From the NCBI GenBank assembly GCA_019745975.1, contig JAIESQ010000006.1, positions 1 to 48,432 on the forward strand: DNA of 48,432 nucleotides. Direction: 5' to 3'. Numbering within the stretch: the stretch's first letter is position 1; each line of letters starts with the position of its first letter. The DNA is from Pirellulales bacterium (GTDB lineage Bacteria; Planctomycetota; Planctomycetia; Pirellulales; JAEUIK01). Below are positions 12,601-39,335 of this stretch, piece by piece. The notes beneath the pieces were generated by a model. The model ran no database searches. It worked only from the letters and a program-made list of their open reading frames with translations, and had not been told where the DNA came from. The position numbers and the translations under genes were made by a program.

Positions 12601-14196
12601 GGTCGGTAGATGGTGGCGGTAGGTGATATCTGGCGGTTCGACGCAGGCCATCGCTGTTGACTCGACCACATTGGCTGGATGCGGCTGCGCGCCCCGCACT
12701 ACAGCCTTCTGCACTCGGTATGCGGCGAAGACGGTCCCCTCCTCAATATCCACCGCCTGTGGGCCGACGAGGAGTTCGAGGCCGCCTACAGCATCTCCAT
12801 CTGATCGAGAGTCGCGAGCATGAGAGACGCCGCCCAGTTCCGCATCGCTTCCACCTCCATTGGGAGTTCCACTCCCTCGCGTTCCAGGATCAAAGTAATC
12901 GTTCTGAGGAGCCTGTCCCCTTGCTCCATCACTACTCGATTCCAAATCAGCCACTGGTCGGTCGTAATCGAAACCTCGCTGGGCGAGAGGACTCCCCCCG
13001 CTCCGTCCTCCAAGAGAGAACCGATCAATTCGACGATCGGTCCCATTTCGGATGTCGGTCCCTGCGAATACCTCGACCGCAGCACCTCGGCTGCGCGCTC
13101 TTTCGTCTTGTCTGCAAACTCGCCCATATACGTCCTCCTTTGATAAGCCTCCAAGTAGATCAAGCGCCGCACGAACCGAGAGTCCGCTCGCGGTAACCAT
13201 GGCCGATCTGTTCGTAGTCGGCCCGTCGCGGTCGATCACGATAATCTGGTTGTCGAACGTCGTGCCAAACTGCGCGTACTCGCGTCCGTCCATACCGACG
13301 TTAGCTCGCACGCTATAGCGTTGGGCGATGTCGGACCACCATTCGCGGAACGCCGGGCGGTCCAGAGCCATCCCACATCCGACGATGGCCACTAGGCGAC
13401 CGCCGGGCTTGAGCCGTAAGAGCGCCTGCTCGATATGCCTCGCGCCAAACGCCGTCCGGTGGCCATTCACTCGGCCGCCTGTCGCCGAGAACGGCGGGTT
13501 CATAACAACGGCGTCGTAGAACTTCTCGGGTGGGAGGAGGTTGTCCAGCCGCTCTGCATCGACCGCGTACGGCTGGAATCCAAGTAGCGTCAGGAGTGAT
13601 CTCCTTCGCTCGTCGATCTCGTTCGTATCTACATCGGCACCAGCCAGCCGTGCCAGGGTCGCGAGGTTGCCCGTCCCCGCACTCGGTTCTAGGACCTTCA
13701 TGCCGGCACAGAGCGAGGCAGCCTTAATGACAGTCAGCGCTTGGGCCGGCGGTGTGCTGAACTGTTGGAAGTCGACTTGGCTCTGGTCGCGCCTGGTCTG
13801 AAGCGGCAGTCGCTCCTGCCCAGTGAGGAGCCGATCGATTGCGGCTTGCGGATTCTTGAGGTCCAGGCCGACGCGGTTCAGATAAATATTGAAGCCCGCC
13901 TCGGCCGCATCGTACGCATCGCGGGCATGACCCGCGGAGCTGCCGAAGATGTCACGGGCCAGCTGTGAAACGGCCGTGTTGTTGAAGCTGGCTGCGGGGT
14001 CTCCTTCCAACCGGGCAGCGAACTCAAGCGCAAAACGCGATGTCGGGTGCTGGTCCGGAGAGACGAGCGTCGCCGGCGGCACTGTCAGGCCACCGAAGTC
14101 GAAACTCAATTGGTGTTGCGACCCCCCAACCGACCCCCGTGGCGGTGTATTGCTCGCTGGTCGGGGGGCTGATGGGTCGCTAGGGTGTTTCACCAT
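9628..14196 (-). CDS. methyltransferase-strawberry notch helicase fusion
   Basis: A 1522-residue protein. Residues about 145-325 form an N6-adenine-type methyltransferase: FSTPP, VLEPSAGTGN (168-177) and the catalytic VMNPPFS (around 232). A low-complexity linker (about 360-480) leads to a strawberry-notch SF2 ATPase with GDGTGIGKGR (571-580) and AFDEAHLMKN (675-684). A C-terminal helicase half has SGAGSTGISVHAD and FGRVHRSNQ. Such fusions occur on plasmids and phages and resemble the layout of phage P1 DarB, an antirestriction protein; that function is inferred. ATG 14196 begins the conserved part; a longer frame to 14328 looks unlikely. It is the last gene of the mobilization cluster. Confidence 0.85.
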   Translation of the reverse strand: MVKHPSDPSAPRPASNTPPRGSVGGSQHQLSFDFGGLTVPPATLVSPDQHPTSRFALEFAARLEGDPAASFNNTAVSQLARDIFGSSAGHARDAYDAAEAGFNIYLNRVGLDLKNPQAAIDRLLTGQERLPLQTRRDQSQVDFQQFSTPPAQALTVIKAASLCAGMKVLEPSAGTGNLATLARLAGADVDTNEIDERRRSLLTLLGFQPYAVDAERLDNLLPPEKFYDAVVMNPPFSATGGRVNGHRTAFGARHIEQALLRLKPGGRLVAIVGCGMALDRPAFREWWSDIAQRYSVRANVGMDGREYAQFGTTFDNQIIVIDRDGPTTNRSAMVTASGLSVRAALDLLGGLSKEDVYGRVCRQDERARSRGAAVEVFAGTDIRNGTDRRIDRFSLGGRSGGSPLAQRGFDYDRPVADLESSSDGARGQAPQNDYFDPGTRGSGTPNGGGSDAELGGVSHARDSRSDGDAVGGLELLVGPQAVDIEEGTVFAAYRVQKAVVRGAQPHPANVVESTAMACVEPPDITYRHHLPTDVIAEGRVSNLQLEDVIYAGQATNALLPDGSRKGHWNGDGTGIGKGREIYAFIYNELEQGRRRHVHISASHQLCADAERDRDAVGLPLPIVHQARFKPNEAISANAGVLFTTYTMLSTDFAGERPRFKQLTDWLGENFDGVIAFDEAHLMKNAAATPHGGKATVDHGTLRGNMGITLQRLFPEARVRYFSATGATEARHMAPYERLGLWGAGAPFADFPAFLVAMERGGVAAMEMLCRDLKSVGTYLSRTISYGATRRPDGTFVPDSAVEYEPLLHRLTEGETQQYDQIADLWSELLVAFESAEQNVCQGRNANRYAQFYSAQQRFFLQLMMAYTLPDVIPSIEQDLSQGRSVVLSLFNTGEAQSDRKVRDARAEGAELSELDATPREMIVQLIEKQFPLYQYQEQTDPVTGNVVRVRIEDAAGNPEINRENQRRQKELLDKVADLDFPQNPLDALVARFGVSNVAEISGRMHRFENGKYVRRKLEGIPRRELNEYETRLFQQGRKHLAVISGAGSTGISVHADVAAKNQDRRVFYAFQLSWSADQQMQAFGRVHRSNQSSAPVIRLVLLDLAGQKRLVNAVSKRLAALGALTKGERHSLSSDLFRPEDVTDEFGKAALARLYRQIQSGQHSEDGIGMRVLDRMGVLDKDKTAVRDNYVSNVEQFLNRIMVLRVEMQNRIFELFHERYVEAVEAAKRQSAFDFGVEEIRARNLKRIAEPETLFVDPASGARTMLHDLQGEVDVVRHPFETVARGAKLGFYRNRQSRRIYAVSEHWDAARNEVNLTGVKGPRRSLEPQELKEKYERVETAEARAWWDAEYANTPATEARRFHILSGAIFPIYDKVMGSSGIQSVKIARAVLADGQALVGLNLSPTDVPNVKLRLGIGTPLAEATTDEVLDLLAGGSLIELDNGWRLASARIAGDDVLELILNGVPANREELLRYGLSEEIIHYKRRWFVIQDGAHEVLPRLLAQRKPIKDLTQAETAPAQR

Positions 14197-14288
14197 AGTC
14201 TTCGTGGTTTTAGCTGTCTGGGTAGTGATGAGATAGCCAGCATTCACTAGAGATATGAGGGAAACACGTACAAGAGTTGCGTAACGGC

Positions 14289-14322
14289 GCGGGACGCTGC
14301 GCCAGGAGCGGTAACGTCCCGC
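14289..14322. terminator. 8-bp inverted repeat between genes
   Basis: GCGGGACG (14289-14296) and CGTCCCGC (14315-14322) are exact complements with an 18-base loop. The repeat lies in the 290-base gap between the DUF2000 gene and the helicase fusion. It could end the DUF2000 transcript or act as an operator. No T-run follows. A GCGGTAAC motif inside the loop also occurs next to the relaxase start. Confidence 0.35.
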
Positions 14323-14485
14323 TATCATTGACCAGAGTTGGCCAGGGTGCAGGTGCTACGGATCTCCAGCGGTTCCTACGCCCGATCGTCCGAGGCTTTC
14401 AGCGCTAGCCCTGGGGGCGGCTAGGGTGACAGTGTCTTTCGCGCCGCTCCGTGTTCACTGATCGCCTTGAGTCCGTCACAGCCGC

Positions 14486-16547: not shown

Positions 16548-19500
16548 CTAGGCAGTTTTCTCCAGGTCGAGGAGGAACAACCCTGCCTGGGGGTTCTTGG
16601 TCCGATGCTGGCGCATCTGGTCGTAGAGATCCTTGACGGTGCGGCCGCGGGCTTTGAGCTCGTGTGCGAGGAGGAGTGCGGTCTTGGAGGCTTCGCTCGC
16701 TGAGGAAGACGCGTGAGCTCTTAGGAACTGTGCCCACCAGTCTGGGAGGTCATGCGGCAAGAACGTTGAGAACAGTTTACGTAGACCGGTCTTCTCGCGG
16801 GGGATCAAGAAGTCGAACCGCTCCACGTCTCTACGCACTGGTGTGAAGAGCTTGGTGAGGTTCGCGGGAGTCTCGTAGTCGAGGAGCTCGTGGCTGGCGA
16901 CGAACGGGTTGTCGCGGTGAAGGAAGCGCGTCGAGAACGAGGTGGCCGGCAGGTGAGCTAGCCGCTCGACAAGGAGTCTCGACAAGACCCTGTTGGCCTC
17001 ATCCGTGCGGTGGGCCGCGAAAGTGGTCAAGTAGTCTTGTATTGGAAGGTCAAAGCGCTGTAGCTCCTGGCATAGCGACAGGACGGTCCGGTGCGAGTGT
17101 CTGTCTCTAAGCTTGAGCCACAAGTCAGCGTATGGCCCAGTAAGGTCTGCGGTGTTGAGCTGTCGTTCACGTTCGAAGATGTCGCGCGGGTCGCGGGGGC
17201 GTGCCTTGACCATCGCGAGGACAGAGAACGGCAGGATCGTCGAGGGATCGGCGGCTCGGACCTTCGCGAGCTCGGGCACGGGGTCGAAGTTGGAGTGGAG
17301 GTAACTCCTGGCCTCAAGCCAGCGACACCGCGTGGGCGAGTTCTGGCTCATCACCTCGGCTGAACCGCAGAGTCGCATCGCCTTGTTCAGATAGGCTACC
17401 CGGTCTTCTGATGGGCAACCGGGATCGCATGCGGCTTCAATGCACGCTTCGATGAGCGTGTCGTGGCAGGATTCTCTTATCCTCTCCTCAAGGTGAGGTA
17501 ACGCCTGACTCAGAACCCGGTACTCGTTCTGGAACGTTTGCGTCTGGAGTCGAGCGATGCACTTGAGTGCGTGTTGCTTGCACGTCGAGAAGGTGGTGAA
17601 GTCACCCGCCTGTGCAGCGTAACGGAGGCCGACCGTCGTCGCCATGAGGCCGTCGAACCACGTCGACTCAGTGCGGGAGAGCTTGCGTGCCGTATCCACC
17701 GCCAGCGTCACGAAGTCCTTGCTGCGGAGCGTGTAGTTGTACTGCGGGAGTGGCTGACGTTGCCGTCTGGCTACTAGGCTGCGGACATGGTCGCTCGATG
17801 ACAGGGTCGCCTTCGCGGCCTTCGCAGCCCGGAGGAGAGACACCAGCTCGGCGTAGGCGATTGTCCGAGCGATGGACGGCTCGGCGCGGGCATGTTCACC
17901 GAAATGGCGCGCCATCGCTTGGACAGCTTGGTGGATCAAGGGGAAATACTTGGTGACGGGGAGCAACTGGTTCGTCACGAGTGCGCCTCCCCAAGTTGTG
18001 ATAGCGAGCGCCGCAGTGACCTTGGTCGAGGTCACCGAGACTAGGTCAGGCTTGGTCTCAGCGAAGCGCGTGTCGCTCACGGTGAGGAACAACTGTGGCA
18101 GGATCTCGTTCATGTAGTTGAAGAAGAGCCGCTCCGTGCCCACCTTGAGCAGCGATTGCTCGGTCTCTTCGACGAACGGGTTGCGGTGATCAGGGCCGGG
18201 TCGTCTGCCGAGGTTGTATTGTGAGTCGTAACCGTAGGCGACAGCCCCGAGCGAGTTGTCTGCCTTCAGCATGGTCACACCGACTTCAGTGTCGGTGTCG
18301 ATACCGATCGTCTTGCGTTGTGAGAGCGCGCCGAAGTCTGTCGTAGCTTGTCCGGTGTCCAAGACAGCATGCCAGATCAACGCGACCTCCTCAGCAGACA
18401 GCCCAGTGTCAAAGGTCTTAGAGCCGTTGATTAGCAAGGAGCTGGGCTGTCGAGGATCGATACCGAGTGAGCGGATCTGCACAAGGCACTGTGCGCTGCC
18501 CTCAACGACGATGCCACCTGGCACGGCCCCGTACCGTTTCACCGCCGCTCGCAGGAAGTCGGCGTCGGTCGTGGTGACGACATTGACGTGAGTCAGGTCC
18601 AAGATATCGCGGGGACGCAAGGCCGGGATCAGAAGATCGGCCACGACCGGTATCTGAGAGCGCACTGGGGTTCGCGTTGGAATGACTTTGCATGGAGGTG
18701 TGGCCGCGACGGTCTTCGGCTTCCGCGACTCTGGAGGAGCTGGTTGCGGGCTATCGTGGCGCGTATCCGAGCCATGCACTGGCGCCGCATGGGTCTGACC
18801 GCCATGGGAGCCGCTCGCCTTCGATTGATCAGCGGCCACGGGCGGGCGCCCGACTGTCTTGGGACTTCGTGGAGGCTTCGCCGGTGGGCTGGCGATCGAG
18901 GGTGTGTTACGGGCGCCATCGGTTGGGACCTGAAAGTCGCGTCCCTTAGTTAATTGTTGGTCGCGGACCCCGGCCGGCTCCTGGTGTACAGTCGGGGTCG
19001 CCGCTGCTTTACCGGCCCCGGCGCTGTCCGCTGACGTCGCGGACGACTTCCGTCGCTTCTTGGCGCGGCGCGACTCCTGACTGTTGGAGGACGTCGGTGT
19101 AGTTGACGTGGGAGCCGATGTGTCCGGTGGCCGACCGCCATCCGGTCCACTGCTTGAAGCGATGTCGTGAGCTAACTTCTTCGGCCGTGGCCTCTCCATG
19201 TGCTTCAGCAAGTGCTTGAGATCAGGACCGGCGTGCGACTTGTCAACGTAGAGGCGTGTGCTCTCGCAGGCTCGGGTCGTCTGCACGTAGCTCAGATGGC
19301 GATCCTGCATCGGGCCTCCCAGGAGCACATAGACGCTGGGGACGGTGGCGCCCTGCGCCTTGTGCGTAGTCATCGCGTACCCGAGCTGTACCTCCTTGTA
19401 GTTCCGATACGGGAGGTAGACGGTCTTCTTCGACTGGTGCAGACGGACTGCCATCGTCTTGTTGAGGCGGTTGAAGCCGAGCACTTGGCCACGGTCACCG

Positions 19501-21683
19501 TTCTTGACCTGGTACAGACGCGAGTTCTTGGTGAAGAGGACGATGTCCCCCGTGTGGAGCTTGACGTCGCCGGTGATGCAGTGCTCCGTGCCGAGTGCCC
19601 CAGCTTGGAGACGAGACGATTGACACATGGTGTTCAGTTCACTGACCTCGGCGCGAGTCGCGGCCAACACGATGTGGTCACTGGGGTCTGCGATCCCCTG
19701 GACGGACCAGTCGCGGACTATCGAGAGCATCGTCTGGTCCCGTTCCGGCAGGACGCTCAGCCGGCCGCGTTCCGCGAACAGCTTGATTGCCTTGGACACG
19801 GCGCCGGCGGCGATCAGTTTGCCAGCCTCACGGTGCCAGCTCGGTTTCGGGTCGTCCGGTTCGACGGCCTGTCGCACGACGTGCTGTAGGTCCGCGCGCT
19901 TCGTGGCTCGCGCGATAGGGGCGAATGCTCCACCGGCTTCGACAGGTTGCAGTTGACGACGGTCACCGACTAAGACGAGCTTGGCCCCCGCCTTCCGCAC
20001 GTGCTTGAGCAACTTGACCATCTGTCGAGTCCCGACCATCCCGGCCTCATCGACGACAACGATTGTCTTCCGGTCCAGCCGGAACCGGCTGCCGTCATAG
20101 GCATAAGTCCGCTTACCCGTGAGGAGCCGCTTCAGCTGTAGTTTATGATGCCGCGCGAAGTCTCGGCGGCCGTCGAGTTGAAGCAACCTCATTGCGATGG
20201 TGTCGCTCTGGATGCCTGAACCTTCCTGGAGGTTGGCGGCGGCGACCGCCGAGAGAGCCATCCCTGTGACTCGGTAACCCGCCTTCTCCCAGGCTTGGCG
20301 CGCGACCTTGAGCGTGAACGTCTTACCCGTCCCTGCCATACCTTCCATCACGTGGACATCGCCCGGTGTAGTGACGAGTCCTATCACGGCGCTGCGCTGT
20401 TCTGTGTTGCGCCTGGACTCGTCGTCCGTGAGCGTAGGGCCGAGAGGGAGCTCACGGTCTAAGATCCGCCCGACGACGCGTGTGCCGACGACGTGCGCCG
20501 AGTCGGCCTCGCCCTGGGCGATCGCCGCGAAGAGCTCCTTTTCGAGTGCCCACATCTCACGGGTTGTGAACACGGTCTCGTCGTGATGCGGGCCGAGCGT
20601 GAGTATCTCGGGGTTTACCGCGAGATACCCTCTGACTTGATCGATGACGTCGGTCGCCGGGACTCCGTAGGCGACGACATCGATCGCCACGCCACGGACC
20701 AGTTGCTGTTCGGAGAAGTAGCTCTCGGTTTCAAGTAATTCCGCGATGACGCGAGTGATGTGATCGTCGAGTACGGGGACTCTGTTGTCGGGTACGACCC
20801 GTCCGAGCAGCCGCTCTGCCATCGCTTCGGAGAACCCGAAGTTGCTGTTGGTCGCTTGCCACCGCCGGAAGAGTTCGCCCCTTGGCGGTGGGGACTTGCG
20901 TTTAGTCTTCCGAGTGTCGAGGGCGGCCATCGCTGCGGCCTTCGAGGAGTGGCTCCGCTTCGACCCGAGCTTGGTCTCGATCTGTCTCCTCCGTGTCGAG
21001 TAGTGGTCCACCAGTTTCTTCGGCACTCCCCGGACGGCAAAAGCCTTCTCCTGACTTTCGATCTCCAGGCCGAGTCCGTTTCGTAGGAGGTACGCGAGCT
21101 GCGCGCGGTAGATCGCTCCGGCGGTCAGTTTGTGTCGGTAGAACGGGTCGCTGAGTATCGTGCCGAACGTGCCATCGGCACGCCCGGCAGCGTTGACCAA
21201 GAGGCAGTGACTGTGTAACTGGGGTTCGAGTTCGCGGCTGCTCCCATGTTCGAAGATGGCCACGACAGGGTGAGCGCGCTCGCGGACCTTGCCTCCTTTA
21301 CCGCGTCGCGTAAGGAGAGCGGTGTCTGCAAGGTAGTCCAGGGCTGCCTTGACGGCCTTATGGTGGAACTTCCTGATCTTCAACCGGACCGCGCGCGGGG
21401 CCTGGGTCCACAGGACGCTCACCGATTTTGGGGCGGAGAAAGTCAGGTCCCACGCCTGTTGGTGGTCTTTGGCGCCGGCGTTCTGGATGAGGACTCTGCC
21501 GTCCGGCGAGAACCCTTTGCATAAGGCTTTGAGCTGCTGCGCTGTCACGGTGCCAGTCAGCCCGAGCGATCTCGCGCCTCGTCCCCACCACTGACCGGGT
21601 GGCTCGCCCGGGCGGAAGTAATAGTCGGCCGTGGCCTGGTCGAGGTAGTAGTCGACGTCTTGGATCCAGTGGATCGAGAGCAT
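16548..21683 (-). CDS. MobF (TrwC/TraI-type) relaxase-helicase
   Basis: A 1711-residue conjugative relaxase. The N-terminal TrwC domain has catalytic tyrosines at 12-13 and 21-22 (DYYLDQATADYY), DLTFSAPKSVSVLW near 79-92 and the metal-binding H157-x-H159 (EPQLHSHCLLVN). A RecD/TraI-type SF1 helicase follows, with GMAGTGKT (448-455), VVVDEAGM (542-549) and a late YAMTTHKAQGATV motif. It nicks oriT and unwinds the transferred strand. After a Pro/Ser-rich linker (about 840-1000) come some 700 residues I cannot assign. The accessory gene upstream and the repeat-rich gap fit a relaxosome. No coupling protein or secretion genes are in the window, so the element may be mobilizable only. Confidence 0.93.
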   Translation of the reverse strand: MLSIHWIQDVDYYLDQATADYYFRPGEPPGQWWGRGARSLGLTGTVTAQQLKALCKGFSPDGRVLIQNAGAKDHQQAWDLTFSAPKSVSVLWTQAPRAVRLKIRKFHHKAVKAALDYLADTALLTRRGKGGKVRERAHPVVAIFEHGSSRELEPQLHSHCLLVNAAGRADGTFGTILSDPFYRHKLTAGAIYRAQLAYLLRNGLGLEIESQEKAFAVRGVPKKLVDHYSTRRRQIETKLGSKRSHSSKAAAMAALDTRKTKRKSPPPRGELFRRWQATNSNFGFSEAMAERLLGRVVPDNRVPVLDDHITRVIAELLETESYFSEQQLVRGVAIDVVAYGVPATDVIDQVRGYLAVNPEILTLGPHHDETVFTTREMWALEKELFAAIAQGEADSAHVVGTRVVGRILDRELPLGPTLTDDESRRNTEQRSAVIGLVTTPGDVHVMEGMAGTGKTFTLKVARQAWEKAGYRVTGMALSAVAAANLQEGSGIQSDTIAMRLLQLDGRRDFARHHKLQLKRLLTGKRTYAYDGSRFRLDRKTIVVVDEAGMVGTRQMVKLLKHVRKAGAKLVLVGDRRQLQPVEAGGAFAPIARATKRADLQHVVRQAVEPDDPKPSWHREAGKLIAAGAVSKAIKLFAERGRLSVLPERDQTMLSIVRDWSVQGIADPSDHIVLAATRAEVSELNTMCQSSRLQAGALGTEHCITGDVKLHTGDIVLFTKNSRLYQVKNGDRGQVLGFNRLNKTMAVRLHQSKKTVYLPYRNYKEVQLGYAMTTHKAQGATVPSVYVLLGGPMQDRHLSYVQTTRACESTRLYVDKSHAGPDLKHLLKHMERPRPKKLAHDIASSSGPDGGRPPDTSAPTSTTPTSSNSQESRRAKKRRKSSATSADSAGAGKAAATPTVHQEPAGVRDQQLTKGRDFQVPTDGARNTPSIASPPAKPPRSPKTVGRPPVAADQSKASGSHGGQTHAAPVHGSDTRHDSPQPAPPESRKPKTVAATPPCKVIPTRTPVRSQIPVVADLLIPALRPRDILDLTHVNVVTTTDADFLRAAVKRYGAVPGGIVVEGSAQCLVQIRSLGIDPRQPSSLLINGSKTFDTGLSAEEVALIWHAVLDTGQATTDFGALSQRKTIGIDTDTEVGVTMLKADNSLGAVAYGYDSQYNLGRRPGPDHRNPFVEETEQSLLKVGTERLFFNYMNEILPQLFLTVSDTRFAETKPDLVSVTSTKVTAALAITTWGGALVTNQLLPVTKYFPLIHQAVQAMARHFGEHARAEPSIARTIAYAELVSLLRAAKAAKATLSSSDHVRSLVARRQRQPLPQYNYTLRSKDFVTLAVDTARKLSRTESTWFDGLMATTVGLRYAAQAGDFTTFSTCKQHALKCIARLQTQTFQNEYRVLSQALPHLEERIRESCHDTLIEACIEAACDPGCPSEDRVAYLNKAMRLCGSAEVMSQNSPTRCRWLEARSYLHSNFDPVPELAKVRAADPSTILPFSVLAMVKARPRDPRDIFERERQLNTADLTGPYADLWLKLRDRHSHRTVLSLCQELQRFDLPIQDYLTTFAAHRTDEANRVLSRLLVERLAHLPATSFSTRFLHRDNPFVASHELLDYETPANLTKLFTPVRRDVERFDFLIPREKTGLRKLFSTFLPHDLPDWWAQFLRAHASSSASEASKTALLLAHELKARGRTVKDLYDQMRQHRTKNPQAGLFLLDLEKTA

Positions 21684-26271: not shown

Positions 26272-26676
26272 TTAGACGCCGCGGTAGCCGTTGGCGTGAA
26301 GCCATTCTTGAACAGCGACCTCGATTATGTCCTGGCGCGTGGCGGGTGTAAGCTTCTTGAGACGCTGGTGCAACGAGGCCTCAGTGAGTAGTTCGTTCGT
26401 TTCTCGGTGAAGTCGCGTGGTCACGTTTTCGAGAACGGCCCGTGCCTCGGGCTCTGCAGGTGGCGTGGACCGGATACGGCGTTGGCGCTCTGCCTTTGGC
26501 CGCTCGGGGATCGTGATTTGAGCCTCCTGCGGCCGTTCCGGATCTTGCATTTGGTCGGGGCGGGTTGCTTTCGATGCCTTCTTTGCTCTGACGGCGTCGA
26601 TGATCCCGCCGACGTCGGCGGCGACTTCTGAGTGAACAGCTGCAAGATCGGAAGCAAAATCGGATCGTCTATCCAT
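26272..26676 (-). CDS. small ParA-partner (centromere-binding) protein
   Basis: A 134-residue protein that overlaps the end of parA by eight bases. The N-terminal half is charged and disordered-looking (KASKATRPDQMQDPERPQEA); the C-terminus (ASLHQRLKKLTPATRQDIIEVAVQEWLHANGY) looks like an RHH-type dimerization/DNA-binding helix pair, as in ParG-like partners of small ParA proteins. It presumably binds parS and regulates the operon. The call relies on gene order and helix pattern. Confidence 0.7.
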   Translation of the reverse strand: MDRRSDFASDLAAVHSEVAADVGGIIDAVRAKKASKATRPDQMQDPERPQEAQITIPERPKAERQRRIRSTPPAEPEARAVLENVTTRLHRETNELLTEASLHQRLKKLTPATRQDIIEVAVQEWLHANGYRGV

Positions 26677-27361
26677 TTGCTGCTTGCTCCATCGATTCAG
26701 GTGGCTCCCCTCGCCTCTTGGGGATTGCGGCCAAACACTCCCCGAAGAGTTCGTTGTACAACGATTCCAAGTCGCCGGCTGCTTCTCTTCCGTCTCGCGA
26801 AATGTTGCGCGTCACAGCGGTGTCGCAGGCGTCGCGGAAGGCGTTGAGCCGGCGGACTTCGGCCTTTGCAACAGACATTCCGAGTTGCTCAAGTTGAGAG
26901 CGGAGTCGACGCGTCTGTACATCCGCCTTGGCAGTGAAGGTGAGGACGAGCGACAACACGGGGCGCGCTCCAGCGTTCATCTCTTGAGCCAGGCGGACGA
27001 ACTTCAGTGCGTCCTTGATGGCTCGGACGTCGGGCTTGGACGGCTGGAGCGGGACTACGGCGAAGTCGGCCAAGAGCGTGATCGTCTGCGACGCGTCTCC
27101 CCCGCTCCCTGGGCTGTCGGCCACGACGATTTCATGGCTCGCGAAGAGTTCAGAGCGTGCCGTGCGGATGTCGTCCATTTCATGGGCTGAAACGACCGTG
27201 ATGGCCGGTTCGGCTACGGTAACCCATTGAGCCGACGTTTGCTGTTCGTCCGTATCAAGCAATGCGACCCGAAACCCTAAGTCGAAGAGCCAGATTGCAA
27301 GGTGCGAAGCGAGGGTCGATTTTCCCACGCCGCCTTTTGTGTTCGTAAAGACAATAAGCAT
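26669..27361 (-). CDS. parA: ParA-family partition ATPase
   Basis: A 230-residue ParA/MinD ATPase of the short plasmid type (no N-terminal HTH). The deviant Walker A is NTKGGVGKSTLASHLA (residues 7-22), Walker A' is VALLDTDEQQTSAQW, and VVADSPGSGGDAS is the Walker B region. It drives plasmid segregation on the nucleoid. With the small partner downstream, the palindrome upstream and the iteron/Rep module beyond, it completes a plasmid maintenance cassette. Confidence 0.93.
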   Translation of the reverse strand: MLIVFTNTKGGVGKSTLASHLAIWLFDLGFRVALLDTDEQQTSAQWVTVAEPAITVVSAHEMDDIRTARSELFASHEIVVADSPGSGGDASQTITLLADFAVVPLQPSKPDVRAIKDALKFVRLAQEMNAGARPVLSLVLTFTAKADVQTRRLRSQLEQLGMSVAKAEVRRLNAFRDACDTAVTRNISRDGREAAGDLESLYNELFGECLAAIPKRRGEPPESMEQAANG

Positions 27362-27445
27362 CTCGCCATAACGCTAGCGCATGACTGTCCAACCTGGCAA
27401 GGCATTATTTTCTGGGCAGGAAAGCGTTCTCGACAAGCGAAACAA

Positions 27446-27488
27446 GCCTTGCTGGCTTGGCTGGCAATGCCAGCCAAGCCAGCAAGGC
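27446..27488. repeat. 43-bp perfect palindrome upstream of parA
   Basis: Two 21-base arms (27446-27466 and 27468-27488) are exact reverse complements around a single A at 27467. Each arm contains nested GCTGGC/TTGGC repeats. It lies 85 bases upstream of parA between the par and rep modules. It may be parS, a ParA-partner operator or an origin dyad; it is too long and exact to be chance. Confidence 0.8.
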
Positions 27489-27616
27489 CACGGCGACATG
27501 CTGACGACGGTGAAAGGACATTTCTGTTGCGACGAGATCCCGAAGCGCGATAGGGTCGGTTCAACTCGCTTGAAGTTGTTTTCTGCATAGGGCAGTCGGC
27601 TCTTCAGTAACGCTCC

Positions 27617-27875: not shown

Positions 27876-27899
27876 AACAACAACACTGGTGCTGTTGTT
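27876..27899. promoter_or_regulatory. rep operator, 11-bp inverted repeat
   Basis: AACAACAACAC (27876-27886) and GTGCTGTTGTT (27889-27899) pair with one mismatch around a TG centre. It lies between the A+T-rich region and the ribosome site of the rep gene, where Rep proteins usually bind to repress themselves. Confidence 0.55.
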
Positions 27900-27915
27900 C
27901 ACTTTGAAAGGAGAG

Positions 27916-29352
27916 ATGGGAAGAGGGGCAAAACTCAAGAAGAAACTCGACACGCGGCTAGCCGATTTTCGTGACGGAAGGGACGAGAACAACTTGGCGG
28001 AGTTTCCGCTTGCGCTTTTGGCCGACCGAGTGCCCGAAGGGCAGAAGTCAGTCGAGTACCAGGACACGATTACTGATTGGAAGACGGGGCAGGTCGTCCA
28101 CCGGCGAGTCTGCATCACGGGGAGCGACAAGTTCGGGCTCCCGACCTCGAAAGACGAAGATGTGCTCTTGGCCCTGGTGCAGCTCACCAAGATTCGTAAT
28201 GACTTTTCAAGTTCCGAGGTCTTCTTCACCAAACATCAGGTCATCGAAGTGCTGGGTTGGCAGAACCGCGGCTGGGCGTACGAACGGGTCGAGGAGTCGC
28301 TGCACCGCTGGAAGGGCGTTTCGGTGCACTACTGGAATGCTTGGCGGGACAATGCGAAGGAAACGTGGAATGACAGCGAGGCGATAGGCATCCTTGAGTA
28401 CGTGAGGATCTCCGACGGGCGACGTACGAAGGGCGGGCGCACAAATCACGCAGACGGTGGATCCCAGATAGTCTGGAACAAGATGTTCTTCGAGAGCTTC
28501 CGCGCCGGCTACCTGAAGAAGCTCGATTTCCAGACCTACCGCTCCCTGAAGCGGCCGGCAGCCCGTCGCGCGTACCGATTCTTGGACAAGCGGTTCCACC
28601 ACTCGGACGTTTGGGAGTTCGATCTGCGTGTGTTCGCCTGTGAGAAGCTTGGGTTTAGCCGAGGCTATGATACGGGACAACTGAAGGAGCGAGTGCAGCC
28701 GGCGCTCGACGAATTGGTCGCGGTGGGCTTCATGGAGTCGCCACGTTACGAAAAGCAAGCTCCTGGTGTTTGGAAGATTCACGTCCGAAGAACGGATCCC
28801 GTCGATCGATCGGTGCCCGGGGTCGGTGCCTGCGACATAACACGAGTGCTTATGGCGCGAGGGATAGGTGCCAGCATCGCTGCACGGCTGGCCAAAGATT
28901 ATTCGCGTGAGCAAATCGAGGAGAAGGTTCGCTTCTTCGACGCGTTGATCTGTAAGAACGATTCGCGGGCCCTTCAGAATCCAGCAGGGTTTCTTGTCTC
29001 GGCGATTCGCGACGACTATGCCGTGGCAAAGGGCCGACTTGGGCCGGGCGCGAATCGGAAGCCAGGCAACACAAAGGGCAGAGTTTCATCCGCCCCAAGC
29101 GAGCCCGTGACAGTCAGCACCATCAGCGCCGGCAAACCGGGCGACGTTGACGATGTAACACGGCTTCGTGCCTATGAGCAAGAAATGACAGCCGAGCATC
29201 GCGTTGAACTCGAGAAACGCGCCCTCGCTGAAGCGACGGCATTCGAGCATCGAACGCTCGAGCGTCTGCAAGCGACAAATCCGGTCCTGTGGGCCCAGCT
29301 TCGCGACAAGCTGGTAATGGCCTGCCTTGAGCGCGACGGCATCTGCCTCTGA
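27916..29352 (+). CDS. RepA-type plasmid replication initiator
   Basis: A 478-residue replication initiator of the RPA (replication initiator protein A) family. The signature start is GRDENNLAEFPLALLADRVPEGQKSVEY, followed by winged-helix segments (VFFTKHQVIEVLGW, YRSLKRPAARRAYRFLDKRF). A C-terminal Rep extension of about 170 residues (from GACDITRVLMARGIG) contains a helical LEKRALAEATAFEHRTLERLQ tail. ATG 27916 has AAAGGAG just upstream; a GTG at 27889 would put the start inside the operator repeat. It binds the iterons and opens the A+T-rich segment. Its presence shows that the element has, or had, autonomous replication. Confidence 0.9.
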   Translation: MGRGAKLKKKLDTRLADFRDGRDENNLAEFPLALLADRVPEGQKSVEYQDTITDWKTGQVVHRRVCITGSDKFGLPTSKDEDVLLALVQLTKIRNDFSSSEVFFTKHQVIEVLGWQNRGWAYERVEESLHRWKGVSVHYWNAWRDNAKETWNDSEAIGILEYVRISDGRRTKGGRTNHADGGSQIVWNKMFFESFRAGYLKKLDFQTYRSLKRPAARRAYRFLDKRFHHSDVWEFDLRVFACEKLGFSRGYDTGQLKERVQPALDELVAVGFMESPRYEKQAPGVWKIHVRRTDPVDRSVPGVGACDITRVLMARGIGASIAARLAKDYSREQIEEKVRFFDALICKNDSRALQNPAGFLVSAIRDDYAVAKGRLGPGANRKPGNTKGRVSSAPSEPVTVSTISAGKPGDVDDVTRLRAYEQEMTAEHRVELEKRALAEATAFEHRTLERLQATNPVLWAQLRDKLVMACLERDGICL

Positions 29353-29550: not shown

Positions 29551-29821
29551 AAATGACACCTCCGGTCAGTCCATAGTCAGCAGCGTTATGCTCTGAGGTC
29601 ATAAACCTGTGACTTATCGCGAATGCGCATACCGTGCGTGGGCATTCATGGGTCACTTGGCCCATAACTCTTATTGAGTGGGACGTGGATAGGTCCTGCC
29701 ATCGTCAAGCTTTTAAACGCTTTGATGTTGATCTTCCAACATGGGCAGCACGCCCGGTAAACCTGGCTACCAACCAGGCTAAGGGGATGGGGTTAACCTC
29801 CCGTCACGTGCTGTGCCGGTA

Positions 29822-29856
29822 GAGCCGGATGCCACGAGAGTGGCTTGTCCGTGCTC
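29822..29856 (+). ncRNA. group II intron domain V-like hairpin
   Basis: A 35-nt hairpin begins GAGC (containing the AGC triad), has a 9-bp lower stem with one extra T bulge (29852), a 2-nt 3'-side bulge (29845-29846), and a 5-bp upper stem GCCAC/GTGGC with GAGA loop. That is almost the layout of domain V. The dinucleotide bulge is TT rather than the usual AY, and no reverse transcriptase gene is near. Confidence 0.4.
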
Positions 29857-29866
29857 GATGGAGGCT

Positions 29867-29917
29867 CCTCAGAGTAATCCTTTCACCCTTTGTTTCGGTG
29901 AAAGAGTAATCCTGAGG
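29867..29917 (+). ncRNA. hairpin with duplicated AGTAATC internal loop
   Basis: Outer stem CCTCAG/CTGAGG and inner stem CTTTCACC/GGTGAAAG enclose an internal loop whose two strands are identical (AGTAATC at 29873-29879 and 29905-29911). Such symmetric purine-rich loops commonly form ordered non-canonical pairs. Confidence 0.6.
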
Positions 29918-30309
29918 TTCTATCCAATGGCGAGAGATCGCCTCTTCGGAATGAGGGCGATGCGGAAAGACCTTGGCTTCGGCCAGGGCCGTCATGGCTC
30001 AAAGACGGTGAATGGTCATTCTGACCAGTAATCCGCCCACGGGGTTCGTGGCCCGAAAGGGCTCGTTCAACGTTGGCCGGCGTAGGGAGCCAGCAGGTTG
30101 GTGACAACCGCTGTCGGACGGTGACTCGTCCGGGTACCAAGCGAAAAACTTGGACGTAAAGAGCTCAACTACGAAAGGCCCGAAAGGGCTTGCCGGTAAG
30201 TTCTCCAAGAGACGTTGCCGAGATTGTCGTTTTTAGGCCAGTAATTGGCCTCGGCGACGGCGAATAGCGTTGGTCCATGGGTAAGGGAGGAGCTTCTGTG
30301 TTCTACCCC

Positions 30310-30344
30310 CTGAAATCGAACGTCGTCCTTTCAGATGGCGTTCG
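30310..30344 (+). ncRNA. probable H-type pseudoknot
   Basis: Stem 1 is CTGAAA (30310-30315) with TTTCAG (30329-30334); stem 2 is CGAACG (30317-30322) with CGTTCG (30339-30344). The strands interleave with loops of 1, 6 and 4 nt, which suit a classical pseudoknot. Confidence 0.55.
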
Positions 30345-30940
30345 GAAACTATGCCGCGGCGGGAGCCCGGACATAGGACCAATGGCCCTCGGGATAACAC
30401 CCGATAGCCACGTGACTCGGAGAACGGAGAGCATGACTAACGCAGGAAGGACTTAAGCTACCGGGTTGGTTACTCGGTGCTTGGCTTGTCAGCCAAGTGA
30501 TTGAAACGCTTGAGTCTGGGAGTGTGGCCCAAGTAGAAAGCCCGGCTCCTTGAAGGCGTAAGCCTTTCAAGGAGCCTGGACGGTGTGCGCGGCAAGGCAG
30601 TCGCGACCCGCTGGCGTGTCAACGGGTGGTGCCGGACACAAATAGCCACGACGAAAGGGCTGACCGGTGTTCATAACCGGTTGGAAGATCAAGGCGGTCG
30701 AGGACTTCTTCAAATTTGAAGGAGTCTCTCGACAGCCGGTTTCCTTGGTTGGACGTAAGGCGGCCTCAAGAGACCGGTCCTGGCGGACAAGTCTCCTGTG
30801 GCAGTGGATTGACGGTGAACATTCGTTGTGTCCCTTCGGACACAGCAGTTCGCTTTTTTGGAGGTTTTGGAAAGCGGTACGCCTATAAATTTGGCGGCGT
30901 GCAACTGGGAATACAGTTCGCATGCCGCCAGGAGGAAGGC

Positions 30941-31258
30941 GTTTCGCGACGAGGTTTCGCAGGAAGGTCGAGGTTTTTGAGGAAAGGTTCCTTAACTTCG
31001 TCCGTTAAATGCGATGCTCCGATCGATGGTCAAGGCCGGGCACGATGCTGGCTGCGACTGTCGTTCTGATCCGCTTTAAGTGGACTGAACGAACGGCGCG
31101 GGGTTGGCCGAACAATCAACCCCATCTTCTCGGCCACTTATCGGTCAACCGGTTGAAAACACTTCTCTGCCGGCGTTCTGTCGCTACACACACACTCGCG
31201 CCTAGAGCCTTGGCAGTTCGCCCTGAAGCATTTGTACGTGTTTCCCGGACAAGTGGGC
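30941..31258 (+). other. leader between structured RNA and gene
   Basis: About 320 bases without a credible gene. Stems continue: GGGGTT (31100-31105)/AACCCC (31118-31123) interleaves with GGCCGA (31106-31111)/TCGGCC (31130-31135), a second possible pseudoknot, and TCAACCGGTTGA at 31145-31156 is a perfect palindrome. It may be the 3' domain of the RNA or a regulatory leader. Confidence 0.45.
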
Positions 31259-32032
31259 ATGGCCAGCTACCGCTACTCTGCATGCTCGGTTCGGGGTTTC
31301 GTTCAGCAGCTTGCGAGCAACTACTTGCCGCATGGCTACTGGTTCTACGTCTCAGGCGTCGTGCCGGAGGGGAAGGATCCAACGAAGGTCGACCGGAAGC
31401 TCATTCGGAAGTACGGCGTTGACAGGTCGAGGCAATCACGCGCACGAAGAAAACAAGCGGGATTTGCCAACCTTCATTACCTTCGCTTTGACCGGTACTG
31501 GGTCCTCTTGGCCACCCATGGAGCACACGAGTTCTTTGAGCTGGAAGCCAGGAACATCCGCGATGTCAGAAGGGTCGGCATCCAGTTTAAGGGCTATTCC
31601 ATCGGTGTGAAGAAAGGCGGGTTCGTTCGAAAAAAGGACCGAAAGGAGCCGGCGCACCCTGACAACAAATACCGAGTCCGCGTTCAAATCGCGGCCAAAC
31701 GATACCGAGAGATGAAGGCGTACTTCGTCGATATTGCGACGCACCGGTCTGTAGACGCTCTCGCTTCAGAACTTTACAACGTGCCGTTTGAGCCCTACGC
31801 CCCGGTCCGCCAGCAGATGCTCAACATCCTCCGACTGGTCAATCGAGTTCGAAAGGAGGCGAGCTACGAGCTTGTGCCGCCGACAGTCCTCAGGTACCTC
31901 CGGCGAATAGTGAAGCCATTTCAGTCCGGACTCGATAGGGAGCGCCTTCCGGTTAGTCCAAGTGTGGAATGCGCCTCGTCGACGGCTTCCGGTACGGATT
32001 CTGAAACAGGCGTTCGTTTGGGGGAGGAATGA
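31259..32032 (+). CDS. unknown basic protein next to structured RNA
   Basis: A 257-residue protein with many Arg/Lys and aromatic residues, beginning MASYRYSACSVRGFVQQLAS. Notable blocks are GYWFYVSGVVPEGKDPTKVD, RSRQSRARRKQAGFANLHYLRFDRYWVLLATHG and VGIQFKGYSIGVKKGGFVRKKD. It resembles, from memory only, hypothetical proteins seen in several planctomycetes; no function is known to me. The basic, aromatic surface would suit RNA binding. ATG 31259 starts the conserved block; a TTG at 31232 is in frame. It follows the large RNA on the same strand and overlaps the next gene by four bases. Confidence 0.75.
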   Translation: MASYRYSACSVRGFVQQLASNYLPHGYWFYVSGVVPEGKDPTKVDRKLIRKYGVDRSRQSRARRKQAGFANLHYLRFDRYWVLLATHGAHEFFELEARNIRDVRRVGIQFKGYSIGVKKGGFVRKKDRKEPAHPDNKYRVRVQIAAKRYREMKAYFVDIATHRSVDALASELYNVPFEPYAPVRQQMLNILRLVNRVRKEASYELVPPTVLRYLRRIVKPFQSGLDRERLPVSPSVECASSTASGTDSETGVRLGEE

Positions 32033-37330: not shown

Positions 37331-38044
37331 TTAGAGCGACCGAGAAGGGCAGGCCCGTTTGAGTGGGCACTGATGGCAGCGAGGGCTCGTGGCGACGCAG
37401 ACCGTGCGGCCGTGCACGATCGCGTTGACGTGCAGCGAGTACCGGATCGAAGGCGGGACGATCGCTTCGAGCGCGTCGTGGATGGAATAGGTGGTGGTGT
37501 CGCTCGCGAGGAGGCCCAGGCGAGACGTGAGACGGGCTACGTGGGTGTCAACCGGCAGGACGTCGCGCCCCAGCGAATACATGAGGACGCACTTGGCGGA
37601 CTTAGTGCCGACTCCCGGTAACGATATCAGGTACTCGTGCGCCGCCTGGTCGTCCATGCCCCGTAGTGCATCCAGGTTGACGACACCGAAGTCGGCGCGC
37701 AAACGCCTCATGATGGCCTTCAGCTTCGGCGCCTTCTGGTTACTTAGCCCGGCATCCTTAATGATCGATTTCAGCCGCCGCACGGGCATATCGACAAGCT
37801 GATCCCAGCTAGTCACAGCGCGTTTCAGGCGGTCGAACACTCGACCGAAGCTCTTACTGGTCGTCATCTGAGAGAGGACGATGAAGACGAGCTCGTCGAG
37901 CGGGTCCTCCTTGTTCCCTAAGTCCGGTGTGCCGTGGAGGTCCTCTAGGACGCGAGTAACACGCTCAGCCCTCCTGGTCTTTGAAGCACGAGTTCGACAG
38001 CCATCGACGCCGGCCGCAGCCGGTCGGTTAGCGGTGAGAACCAT
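37331..38044 (-). CDS. EndoIII/MutY-family DNA glycosylase
   Basis: A 237-residue HhH-GPD glycosylase. The helix-hairpin-helix is SLPGVGTKSAKCVLMYSLG with catalytic K148, and VLPVDTHVARL supplies the catalytic Asp (D166). The C-terminal CVATSPRCHQCPLKRAC holds an iron-sulfur cluster (C-x6-C-x2-C-x5-C). It overlaps the cytosine methyltransferase gene by 17 bases. A known precedent is the thymine-mismatch glycosylase linked to a cytosine methyltransferase on a methanogen plasmid, which repairs deaminated 5-methylcytosine; this pair may do the same. Alternatively it could cut modified DNA. Confidence 0.88.
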   Translation of the reverse strand: MVLTANRPAAAGVDGCRTRASKTRRAERVTRVLEDLHGTPDLGNKEDPLDELVFIVLSQMTTSKSFGRVFDRLKRAVTSWDQLVDMPVRRLKSIIKDAGLSNQKAPKLKAIMRRLRADFGVVNLDALRGMDDQAAHEYLISLPGVGTKSAKCVLMYSLGRDVLPVDTHVARLTSRLGLLASDTTTYSIHDALEAIVPPSIRYSLHVNAIVHGRTVCVATSPRCHQCPLKRACPSRSL

Positions 38045-39335
38045 TGCGCTGCGAGTCGGTGAACTCGTCCTTTTCGATCCTTCTCCGTGCGATCCCGTTC
38101 AGCCAGTTTAAGGCACTCCGAGCGGATTTGATACGACGCATGCGGACGGGGTTGAGGATCGTGCGTGGCCTGTCCGCAATACGTTTCAGTAGGTCGCTAT
38201 TCAGGCACACGACGCGGCCGCGCTTGCGGCCCTTGTTCCGGCGACGCATGATCTTCCGCAGAGTCCGTCCGATGGCTTCTCCGAGACCAACGGGCACAGC
38301 GTTGCCGATCTGTTTGTACTGTTGTGGCGGCCCGCCCGCGAACACCCAAGTGTCCGGGAACTGCTGGATGCGTGCGTACTCGCGCACGCTCAGCGGTCGA
38401 AGCTTTGTTGGGTGGCACAAGAGGGTCGCTTTACTCGACGGCCGCGTCGTCAACGATGGTGCCGGGCGATCCCAATCGAGTCGACGATAGAACCCGGAGC
38501 GACCTCCCCATGACTTATATGCTGCTCCCATGGCGAAACGTTGCGACCGTTTGGGGATGTCGCGCCAGTTCCCTCCGGCCGGCACCACCTTGAGATACTT
38601 GAGCCAGGCGGGCGGGATGTTGATGTAAACGGGCTTCTTTTCGTCCAGCCCCTCCAACGCGTTCGAGAGGCTGACCCATGCTGCTTCCTTGTCCGTCGCC
38701 TCTTTTGCGTGCGTCGCGGATGGCATCGTGACTTGTTCGCCATCTCGCGAGCCGATGAAAAGCAACCGTTCGCGCACCTGAGGCACACCGAAGTCCGCGG
38801 CGTTCACTCGGTCGAACACTGTGTAGTACTGGAGCCTTCGGAGCTGGTCGATAACGAACTTGAACCCAGAACCCAGTTCTTCCTCGGCTGTCAGGGGTGG
38901 GAAACCAGGTCCTCGTTTGTTGAGGGGCCGGTGTTTGATCGCCGCCGACAGCATCCCACTCACGTTCTCGATCACGAAGAACCGCGGTCGTGTATCGCGG
39001 ACGACGCGTAAGTACTCATGGATCAACATCCCTCGCGGGTCGGCTAAGGAGGCTCTCTGTCCAGCCGTACTGAAAGACTGGCAGCACAGGCCGCCGACGA
39101 CGACGACCGGCTCTCCTTTCTTGAGGCCGGCGGCGCTGAGGATCTCGCGGCTCGTGATGTCCTCTAACTTCCGTTCGATGAGCGGGAGTTTGGGGCGGTT
39201 GAGCCGGATGGTCGCGGCAGCGAACCGGTCGCACTCGACGGCGACGCGGATATCGAAGCCAGCACGTTCTAGTCCGAGATCGAGACCGAGTGAGCCTGAG
39301 AAGAGCGAGATGACAGGGAGCCCACGCCTAGCCAT
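38028..39335 (-). CDS. DNA (cytosine-5) methyltransferase
   Basis: A 435-residue C5 methyltransferase with all main motifs: I (LFSGSLGLDLGLERAGFD), IV (GGLCCQSFSTAGQR), VI (FVIENVSGML), VIII (ADFGVPQVRERLLFIG), IX (SLTTRPSSKATL) and X (KQIGNAVPVGLGEAIG). The usual Pro before the catalytic Cys is replaced by another Cys (C84-C85), which is rare. A basic C-terminal tail of about 65 residues follows the core. It overlaps the RHH gene upstream and the glycosylase downstream. No cognate restriction enzyme is adjacent, unless the nuclease at 32511-33020 serves. Confidence 0.92.
   Translation of the reverse strand: MARRGLPVISLFSGSLGLDLGLERAGFDIRVAVECDRFAAATIRLNRPKLPLIERKLEDITSREILSAAGLKKGEPVVVVGGLCCQSFSTAGQRASLADPRGMLIHEYLRVVRDTRPRFFVIENVSGMLSAAIKHRPLNKRGPGFPPLTAEEELGSGFKFVIDQLRRLQYYTVFDRVNAADFGVPQVRERLLFIGSRDGEQVTMPSATHAKEATDKEAAWVSLSNALEGLDEKKPVYINIPPAWLKYLKVVPAGGNWRDIPKRSQRFAMGAAYKSWGGRSGFYRRLDWDRPAPSLTTRPSSKATLLCHPTKLRPLSVREYARIQQFPDTWVFAGGPPQQYKQIGNAVPVGLGEAIGRTLRKIMRRRNKGRKRGRVVCLNSDLLKRIADRPRTILNPVRMRRIKSARSALNWLNGIARRRIEKDEFTDSQRNGSHR

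What the first reader, a model, noticed from the sequence alone, without database searches (positions are those of the whole stretch)
29590..30940. Large ornate structured RNA candidate
About 1.35 kb has no believable gene yet contains more than fifteen strong stems, six of them closed by GNRA or UUCG tetraloops that only make sense on the plus strand (GAGA 29934, GAAA 30055, GTGA 30101, GAAA 30182, GTAA 30558, UUCG 29978). Stems reach 14-15 bp with single bulges. This density resembles large ornate RNAs such as OLE, GOLLD and ROOL, but I cannot match it to one.
Basis: partly seen in the sequence, partly recalled or inferred. Interest (0 to 1): 0.92.

Follow-up and report, generated by a model that had tools for sequence, protein, structure and literature searches.

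The report
Circularly permuted group II ribozyme
The stretch encodes a large self-processing RNA, a group II intron ribozyme with its parts in rotated order that should cut out a tiny RNA circle, and the gene beside it looks like a shrunken, inactive reverse transcriptase that may help the RNA fold.

Summary
About 1.27 kb (29680-30950, + strand) is a conserved structured RNA with massive covariation. It is not a new ornate class. It is a circularly permuted (CP) group II ribozyme (Roth et al. 2021, PMC8637638), here on plasmid-like DNA of Pirellulales (Planctomycetota), a phylum that paper's text does not name.

The order is P2-D5-D6-linker-D1-D2-D3-D4. The published splice sites (NU, GGGCG) are present, with a branch A (29922) and a predicted 26-nt circle (29929-29954). 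A covariance model built only from planctomycete sequences finds the experimentally active Polaromonas ribozyme (E 1.5e-11) and, there, the published 32-nt linker. The 5' splice site pairs with an EBS1 loop in D1; only the expected register beats shuffles.

The gene just downstream (31259-32032) belongs to the unexplained AcpG family. RNA and gene co-occur in 17 of 57 genomes, with none carrying one alone. Two predicted AcpG-family structures align best with group II intron reverse transcriptases/maturases (Z 9.8, 9.5), but the catalytic aspartates are missing. AcpG may be a degenerate, Prp8-like maturase. Sequence profiles alone do not show this link. The RNA is a new member of a known kind; the reading of AcpG appears new.

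The parts
29743..29817 (+). 5' domain: closing stem with the P2 hairpin (stem 29762-29766/29774-29778). P2 loop ACCAA (29769-29773) is complementary to the D2 loop UUGGU (30466-30470), the P2-D2 pseudoknot of CP group II RNAs
   Evidence: fold; loops compared in 23 sequences, ACCA/UGGU in most; the pseudoknot is described
29822..29856 (+). Domain 5 (catalytic hairpin): AGC triad, GAGA loop, UN bulge
   Evidence: Rfam RF00029 34.9 bits E 1.2e-4 here (gathering 40); 44.8 to 49.4 bits in relatives; 14-pair helix, 97.2% of cells paired, 9 pairs with double changes
29859..29926 (+). Domain 6, with bulged branch-point A29922 (invariant), 7 nt from the 3' splice site
29929..29954 (+). Linker between the reversed splice sites = predicted 26-nt RNA circle (3' splice site after ..UCUAUCCAAU29928; contains the GAGA hairpin 29930-29941 and IBS1 GGAAUG 29948-29953)
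   Evidence: the same reading gives 32 nt in pPNAP05, as published
29955..30438 (+). Domain 1, opening with the 5' splice site GGGCGA (invariant in the alignment); EBS1 loop UGUUCU at 30299-30304 pairs with IBS1
   Evidence: EBS1-IBS1 register test; GGGCG as 5' splice site
30449..30517 (+). Domain 2 (loop 30466-30472 contacts P2)
30518..30526 (+). J2/3, purine-rich GGGAGUGUG, nearly invariant
30527..30661 (+). Domain 3, with an AGUA/GAA-type internal loop (E-loop) at its base and a variable apical arm
   Evidence: for the E-loop in CP group II
30662..30873 (+). Variable stem-rich region between D3 and D4, least conserved part
30874..30947 (+). Domain 4-position terminal stem-loop; 3' end of the RNA
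   Evidence: fold z -7.65; conserved segment
31259..32032 (+). acpG homologue (257 aa; ORF listed from a TTG at 31232): predicted reverse-transcriptase-like palm and thumb without the catalytic aspartates
27889..29352 (+). Plasmid replication initiator RepA (PF10134), upstream neighbour of the RNA
   Evidence: homologue in 24 loci including this one
26669..27361 (-). ParA partition ATPase, divergent neighbour of repA

Best explanation
The stretch encodes a circularly permuted group II ribozyme. Domains 5 and 6 precede domains 1-4, so the two splice sites lie inside the RNA in reverse order. Shown here: domain order, covarying structure, splice-site sequences, branch A, EBS1-IBS1 pairing, and detection of a known active member by the family model. 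Inferred from the tested relatives: the 2'-OH of A29922 attacks the phosphate 5' of G29955, and the freed 3' end at 29954 attacks the junction after 29928. This releases a 26-nt RNA circle and leaves a branched RNA in which the D5-D6 arm is joined 2'-5' to D1-D4. Inferred from structure and gene linkage: the gene just downstream makes AcpG, a shrunken and catalytically dead relative of the group II intron reverse transcriptase/maturase, which binds this RNA and helps it fold, as maturases and Prp8 do. The gene sits where an intron-encoded protein would fall if an ORF-bearing group II intron were opened inside domain 4. The biological use of the reaction is unknown; the setting is a plasmid replication/partition module.
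For: D5/D6 match to group II introns in the window and relatives. 116 of 155 predicted pairs carry compensatory double changes (22/31, 68/89, 26/35), with controls. CM R1, from 18 Planctomycetota sequences only, finds the Polaromonas pPNAP05 ribozyme at 47 bits, E 1.5e-11, cyanobacterial and Planococcus plasmid copies, and weakly the exact place on Thermus pTT8 (12.9 bits, E 0.08). The splice-site reading reproduces the published 32-nt pPNAP05 linker, and the paper gives GGGCG and NU as the sites. EBS1-IBS1: the register abutting the 5' splice site is the only one beating all 500 shuffles, 0.772 paired vs mean 0.681, max 0.754. P2-D2 loop complementarity. Downstream ORF is homologous to Thermus AcpG: hhalign score 49.0, E 1.5e-6, best of 150 shuffles 22.5. 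RNA and AcpG co-occur in 17 of 57 order genomes with no exception. Two AlphaFold models (pLDDT 86 and 92): best VIA-align matches are group II intron RTs (8h2h_D Z 9.8, 197 residues, 4.3 A; Z 9.5 for the second), ranks 1-7 in both are group II intron RTs and the other top rows are other RTs and Prp8; Foldseek ranks 1, 3 and 4 for the second model are group II intron RNP proteins.
Against: No activity was measured for this RNA. The Thermus hit of the model is weak. Circle formation in vivo has not been shown for any member. Roth et al. report CP RNAs without a nearby acpG.
Confidence: 0.88

Rival explanations
1. A non-catalytic ornate RNA (OLE/GOLLD/ROOL-like) that acts as a scaffold or oligomer and only borrowed a D5-like hairpin.
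For: Size, density of GNRA loops and stems; role unknown; mobile-element setting as for ROOL and GOLLD (own knowledge).
Against: All group II parts are kept together: D5, D6 with bulged A, reversed splice sites, EBS1-IBS1 pairing, J2/3, E-loop, and the model finds a proven ribozyme. No Rfam match to OLE, GOLLD or ROOL, even with the permissive threshold.
Confidence: 0.02
2. A decayed or accidentally rearranged group II intron without function.
For: The own genome holds no reverse transcriptase hit and no maturase-domain hit; no retromobility is evident.
Against: Strong purifying selection on structure across families and phyla, invariant splice-site and J2/3 positions, conserved neighbour acpG. 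Roth et al. found all five tested members active.
Confidence: 0.03
3. The RNA is a CP group II ribozyme, but AcpG is not an RT descendant: its palm-like fold is convergent and it serves plasmid replication or partition.
Against: In both models group II RTs fill ranks 1-7 and Z is above the stated background of 7-8; alignments span palm and thumb; an invariant Arg followed by a mostly aromatic residue sits at the hairpin where RTs have (R)YADD; AcpG follows the RNA also where repA is absent.
Confidence: 0.22
4. Ordinary order after all: D5-D6 end one intron and D1-D4 begin another in tandem or trans-splicing halves.
For: Group II introns split in trans are known in organelles (own knowledge; mentioned).
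Against: No D1-D4 upstream of D5: conservation starts near 29681. The linker is 12-103 nt in 40 copies and its end pairs with EBS1 of the downstream D1.
Confidence: 0.02

Closest known systems
Circularly permuted (CP) group II ribozymes, 'T-large' RNA (Roth et al. 2021, PMC8637638)
   Same: Domain order D5-D6-linker-D1-D2-D3-D4, UN bulge in D5, GGGCG 5' splice site, NU 3' splice site, short linker, EBS1-IBS1, P2-D2 loop complementarity, E-loop at D3, no ORF inside, plasmid setting near rep genes, acpG nearby
   Different: Planctomycetota host (the paper's text names Deinococcus-Thermus, Firmicutes, Proteobacteria); about 1.27 kb against about 900 nt; acpG downstream on the same strand in the loci examined, whereas elsewhere its place and orientation vary; repA-RNA-acpG cassette in many loci
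Canonical group II introns (Rfam RF00029, D5-D6)
   Same: D5, D6, branch A, J2/3, EBS1-IBS1
   Different: Permuted domain order, splice sites inside the RNA, UN instead of AY bulge, no internal ORF
Group II intron reverse transcriptase/maturase (e.g. PDB 8h2h, 8t2s, 6me0) and Prp8
   Same: Predicted palm and thumb fold over nearly the whole AcpG homologue; partner of a group II-type RNA
   Different: About 220 ordered residues, no room for a full fingers domain, no catalytic Asp triad, no detectable sequence-profile similarity
OLE, GOLLD, ROOL ornate RNAs
   Same: Large, stem-rich, conserved bacterial noncoding RNA
   Different: No Rfam match; group II catalytic parts present

Membership tests
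CP group II ribozyme | D5 and D6 located 5' of D1-D4 | tested here: met
   D5 29822-29856, D6 29859-29926, then GGGCGA and D1; nothing conserved upstream that could be D1-D4
CP group II ribozyme | Reversed splice sites NU / GGGCG with a short linker | tested here: met
   26 nt here, 12-103 nt in 40 copies; published range 15-86
CP group II ribozyme | Bulged branch-point A in D6 | tested here: met
   A29922, invariant in 18 sequences
CP group II ribozyme | EBS1-IBS1 pairing at the 5' splice site | tested here: met
CP group II ribozyme | P2-D2 loop-loop pseudoknot | tested here: met
   ACCAA/UUGGU complementary here and in most relatives; few covarying changes
CP group II ribozyme | Homology to experimentally active members | tested here: met
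   R1 finds pPNAP05 at E 1.5e-11; pTT8 only 12.9 bits
CP group II ribozyme | Self-processing to a circle and a branched RNA | not testable with these tools
   needs in-vitro transcription
AcpG (TTHC007 family) | Sequence homology to Thermus AcpG | tested here: met
   hhalign E 1.5e-6 over 169 collinear columns; score 49.0 vs best shuffle 22.5 of 150; pairwise BLASTP negative. That L010:6164-6940 is TTHC007 follows from its size and divergent position, not from a locus tag
AcpG (TTHC007 family) | Genetic linkage to CP group II RNA | tested here: met
   38 of 39 loci with enough upstream sequence carry D5-D6 upstream on the same strand; the other three carry the 3' part
Group II intron RT/maturase | RT palm and thumb fold | tested here: met
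   predicted models only; VIA-align Z 9.8 and 9.5 to 8h2h_D
Group II intron RT/maturase | Catalytic Asp of motif A and YADD of motif C | tested here: not met
   inferred equivalents are Gly32 (21/24) and position 78 Arg (16/24), position 79 never acidic
Group II intron RT/maturase | Sequence-profile similarity to group II RTs | tested here: not met
   hhalign score 16.65, shuffles up to 23.5
OLE / GOLLD / ROOL | Match to the Rfam covariance models | tested here: not met
   no match at gathering threshold or at E up to 5

The most novel reading that the evidence does not exclude
AcpG, the unexplained protein linked to CP group II ribozymes, is a miniaturised, catalytically dead descendant of the intron-encoded reverse transcriptase that became a dedicated maturase of the permuted ribozyme: a bacterial parallel to Prp8 and the spliceosome. 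The planctomycete order D5-D6-D1-D2-D3-D4-acpG would then keep the ancestral layout of an ORF-bearing intron opened inside domain 4.
Probability: 0.62. Interest if true: 0.85.

Novelty: new member of a known kind. Interest (0 to 1): 0.64.

Why it matters
CP group II ribozymes have been described in one paper in the library searched, with no known role and a linked protein of unknown nature. These planctomycete loci give a large, covarying set in another phylum, a fixed repA-ribozyme-acpG cassette in many of them, and a testable identity for AcpG as a dead reverse transcriptase serving a group II RNA. That would be an independent instance of the step proposed for Prp8 and the spliceosome, and it makes the in-vivo cofactor and the origin of the permuted ribozyme directly testable.

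Tried and rejected
Rfam at gathering threshold: no match in the window. A relative search with RepA in genome contigs found nothing. Alignment A4 was too diverse for a pattern search. Pfam, NCBIfam, PHROGs and PDB sequence searches with AcpG: nothing convincing. BLASTP of AcpG against the Thermus protein: nothing, rescued by profiles. hhalign of AcpG against 12 group II RTs: not significant; the best alignment puts HYLRFDRYWVLL over VRYADDFVIL and GYSI over FLGYSF, but shuffles score higher, so this is not used as evidence. Viral contigs: no AcpG relatives. Weak R1 hits of 25-32 bits in one other planctomycete family, several covering only D5-D6, are probably canonical introns and were not counted as CP RNAs. 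A nearby protein on pPNAP05 is not AcpG-like. The supplementary Data S1 of Roth et al. could not be read, so Planctomycetota may be listed there. Strand from folding energy rejected: both strands fold equally well.

Full report
Check of the observation. The stretch folds far better than shuffled sequence on both strands, so strand must come from elsewhere. A whole-genome search found DNA homologues in 16 of 57 genomes of the same order, including a second copy in the same genome at 79% identity (G000:C108:21816-23102); the conserved part runs from about 29681 to 30930. Alignments of 18-23 homologues show compensatory changes in 22 of 31, 68 of 89 and 26 of 35 predicted pairs. Counts against shuffles and slid partners leave no doubt.

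What it is. Rfam gives nothing at its gathering threshold, but a permissive scan found group II intron D5-D6 at 29820-29928 (34.9 bits, E 1.2e-4), with matches at the corresponding place in relatives, over the threshold in three of them. D5-D6 sits at the 5' end of the conserved RNA, not the 3' end. That is the signature of circularly permuted group II ribozymes (Roth et al. 2021, PMC8637638). That paper describes an RNA of about 900 nt ordered D5-D6-D1-D2-D3-D4, with splice sites NU and GGGCG, a short linker released as a circle, a P2-D2 pseudoknot, plasmid residence and a linked protein called AcpG.

Membership tests. A covariance model (R1) built only from 18 Planctomycetota sequences over D5-D6-linker-5' splice site was run on other loci. 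It found the experimentally active ribozyme of Polaromonas plasmid pPNAP05 (47 bits, E 1.5e-11), plasmid copies in Leptolyngbya and Calothrix (Cyanobacteria) and Planococcus (Firmicutes), and, weakly (12.9 bits, E 0.08), a place on Thermus plasmid pTT8 where the splice-site sequences can also be read by eye. Reading the splice sites the same way gives a 32-nt linker on pPNAP05, which is the published value. In the window it gives a 26-nt circle, 29929-29954. Linkers in 40 copies are 12-103 nt. The end of the linker (IBS1) pairs with a D1 loop (EBS1, 30299-30304): of ten registers tested, only the one abutting the 5' splice site exceeds all 500 shuffles. The P2 and D2 loops are complementary. 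[quoted passage not shown]

The neighbour gene. Directly downstream on the same strand lies an ORF of 257 aa (31259-32032). In the 57 genomes, RNA and ORF occur in the same 17 and are both absent from the other 40 (the seventeenth RNA was found by R1). Over 41 distinct loci including named organisms (Pirellulales, Phycisphaerales, MAGs labelled Hydrogenedentes and Calditrichota, Cyanobacteria, Planococcus), 38 of the 39 with enough sequence have D5-D6 upstream of the ORF on the same strand; two more are cut by contig ends but show the 3' part, and L065 has only the 3' part. The family has no Pfam, NCBIfam or PHROG match. It is homologous to Thermus AcpG by profile comparison (score 49.0, E 1.5e-6; best of 150 shuffles 22.5). 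The Thermus protein L010:6164-6940 is taken to be TTHC007 from its size and divergent position. RepA (PF10134) lies near the RNA in 24 loci including this one, often with ParA, and planctomycete plasmid pK2D_1 carries repA, the RNA and acpG.

AcpG fold. AlphaFold models of the window protein (pLDDT 86, pTM 0.79) and of a 47%-identical homologue (pLDDT 92, pTM 0.83) were compared with the PDB. VIA-align ranked group II intron reverse transcriptases first in both: 8h2h_D at Z 9.8 (197 residues, 4.3 A) and Z 9.5 (189 residues, 4.4 A), followed by further group II RTs, DRT and retron RTs and Prp8. The strand-helix order fits palm plus thumb. At the hairpin where RTs carry YADD, AcpG has an invariant Arg, mostly an aromatic residue, then mostly Arg, and never an acidic residue at the second Asp place; the motif A Asp is mostly Gly. 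That mapping is inferred, not read from a residue-level structural alignment. Sequence profiles alone do not support RT homology, so the maturase reading rests on predicted structure, linkage and gene position.

Mechanism. Shown: architecture, conservation, pairing, linkage. Inferred: two transesterifications as in tested relatives, giving a 26-nt circle and a branched RNA; AcpG as a folding cofactor; origin by opening an ORF-bearing group II intron within D4, which places the ORF after D4. The own genome shows no reverse transcriptase or maturase-domain hit that could act in trans. The benefit to plasmid or host is unknown. Roth et al. note that most of the ribozyme can be deleted from pTT8 without loss of replication, though a chromosomal copy might compensate.

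Novelty. The RNA is a new member of a known kind, in a phylum not named in the text of the only paper found on the class. The RT-like nature of AcpG was not found in the library searched; there AcpG is stated to have no homology to any known class.

Noticed in passing
L014 (G000:C108:16000-26779): A second ParA-RepA-CP RNA-AcpG cassette in the same genome, on another contig, with a gene 71% identical to the window's large helicase.
   Followed up: partly
L065:4313-4785: Only the 3' part of the RNA is present upstream of acpG, although 5 kb of upstream sequence is available: a truncated copy or a diverged 5' half.
   Followed up: no
L030:6543-6993: D5-D6 and the rest of the RNA are separated by roughly 200 extra bases; the splice sites could not be read, so the linker may be unusually long or carry an insertion.
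   Followed up: no
L013:1633-1792 and 3784-3934: A Calothrix plasmid carries two CP group II D5-D6 matches 2 kb apart with 15-nt linkers; only the second is followed directly by acpG.
   Followed up: no
window 27370-27560: Repeated palindromic GCCTTG/CAAGGC-type sequence between the divergent parA and repA genes (seen as repeated peptides on both strands), a possible plasmid origin or parS region.
   Followed up: no
window 9628-14328 and 16548-21683: A large strawberry-notch type helicase gene (PF13872/PF13871) and a TrwC relaxase: the contig looks like a mobilizable plasmid, but its ends do not overlap.
   Followed up: partly
window 37331-39335: A C5 DNA methylase next to an HhH-GPD base-excision glycosylase, possibly a modification/repair or defence pair.
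   Followed up: no
L020 and L021 (G030:C498 and C154): In this assembly the contigs break inside the CP RNA; loci L061 and L063 also end inside it.
   Followed up: no
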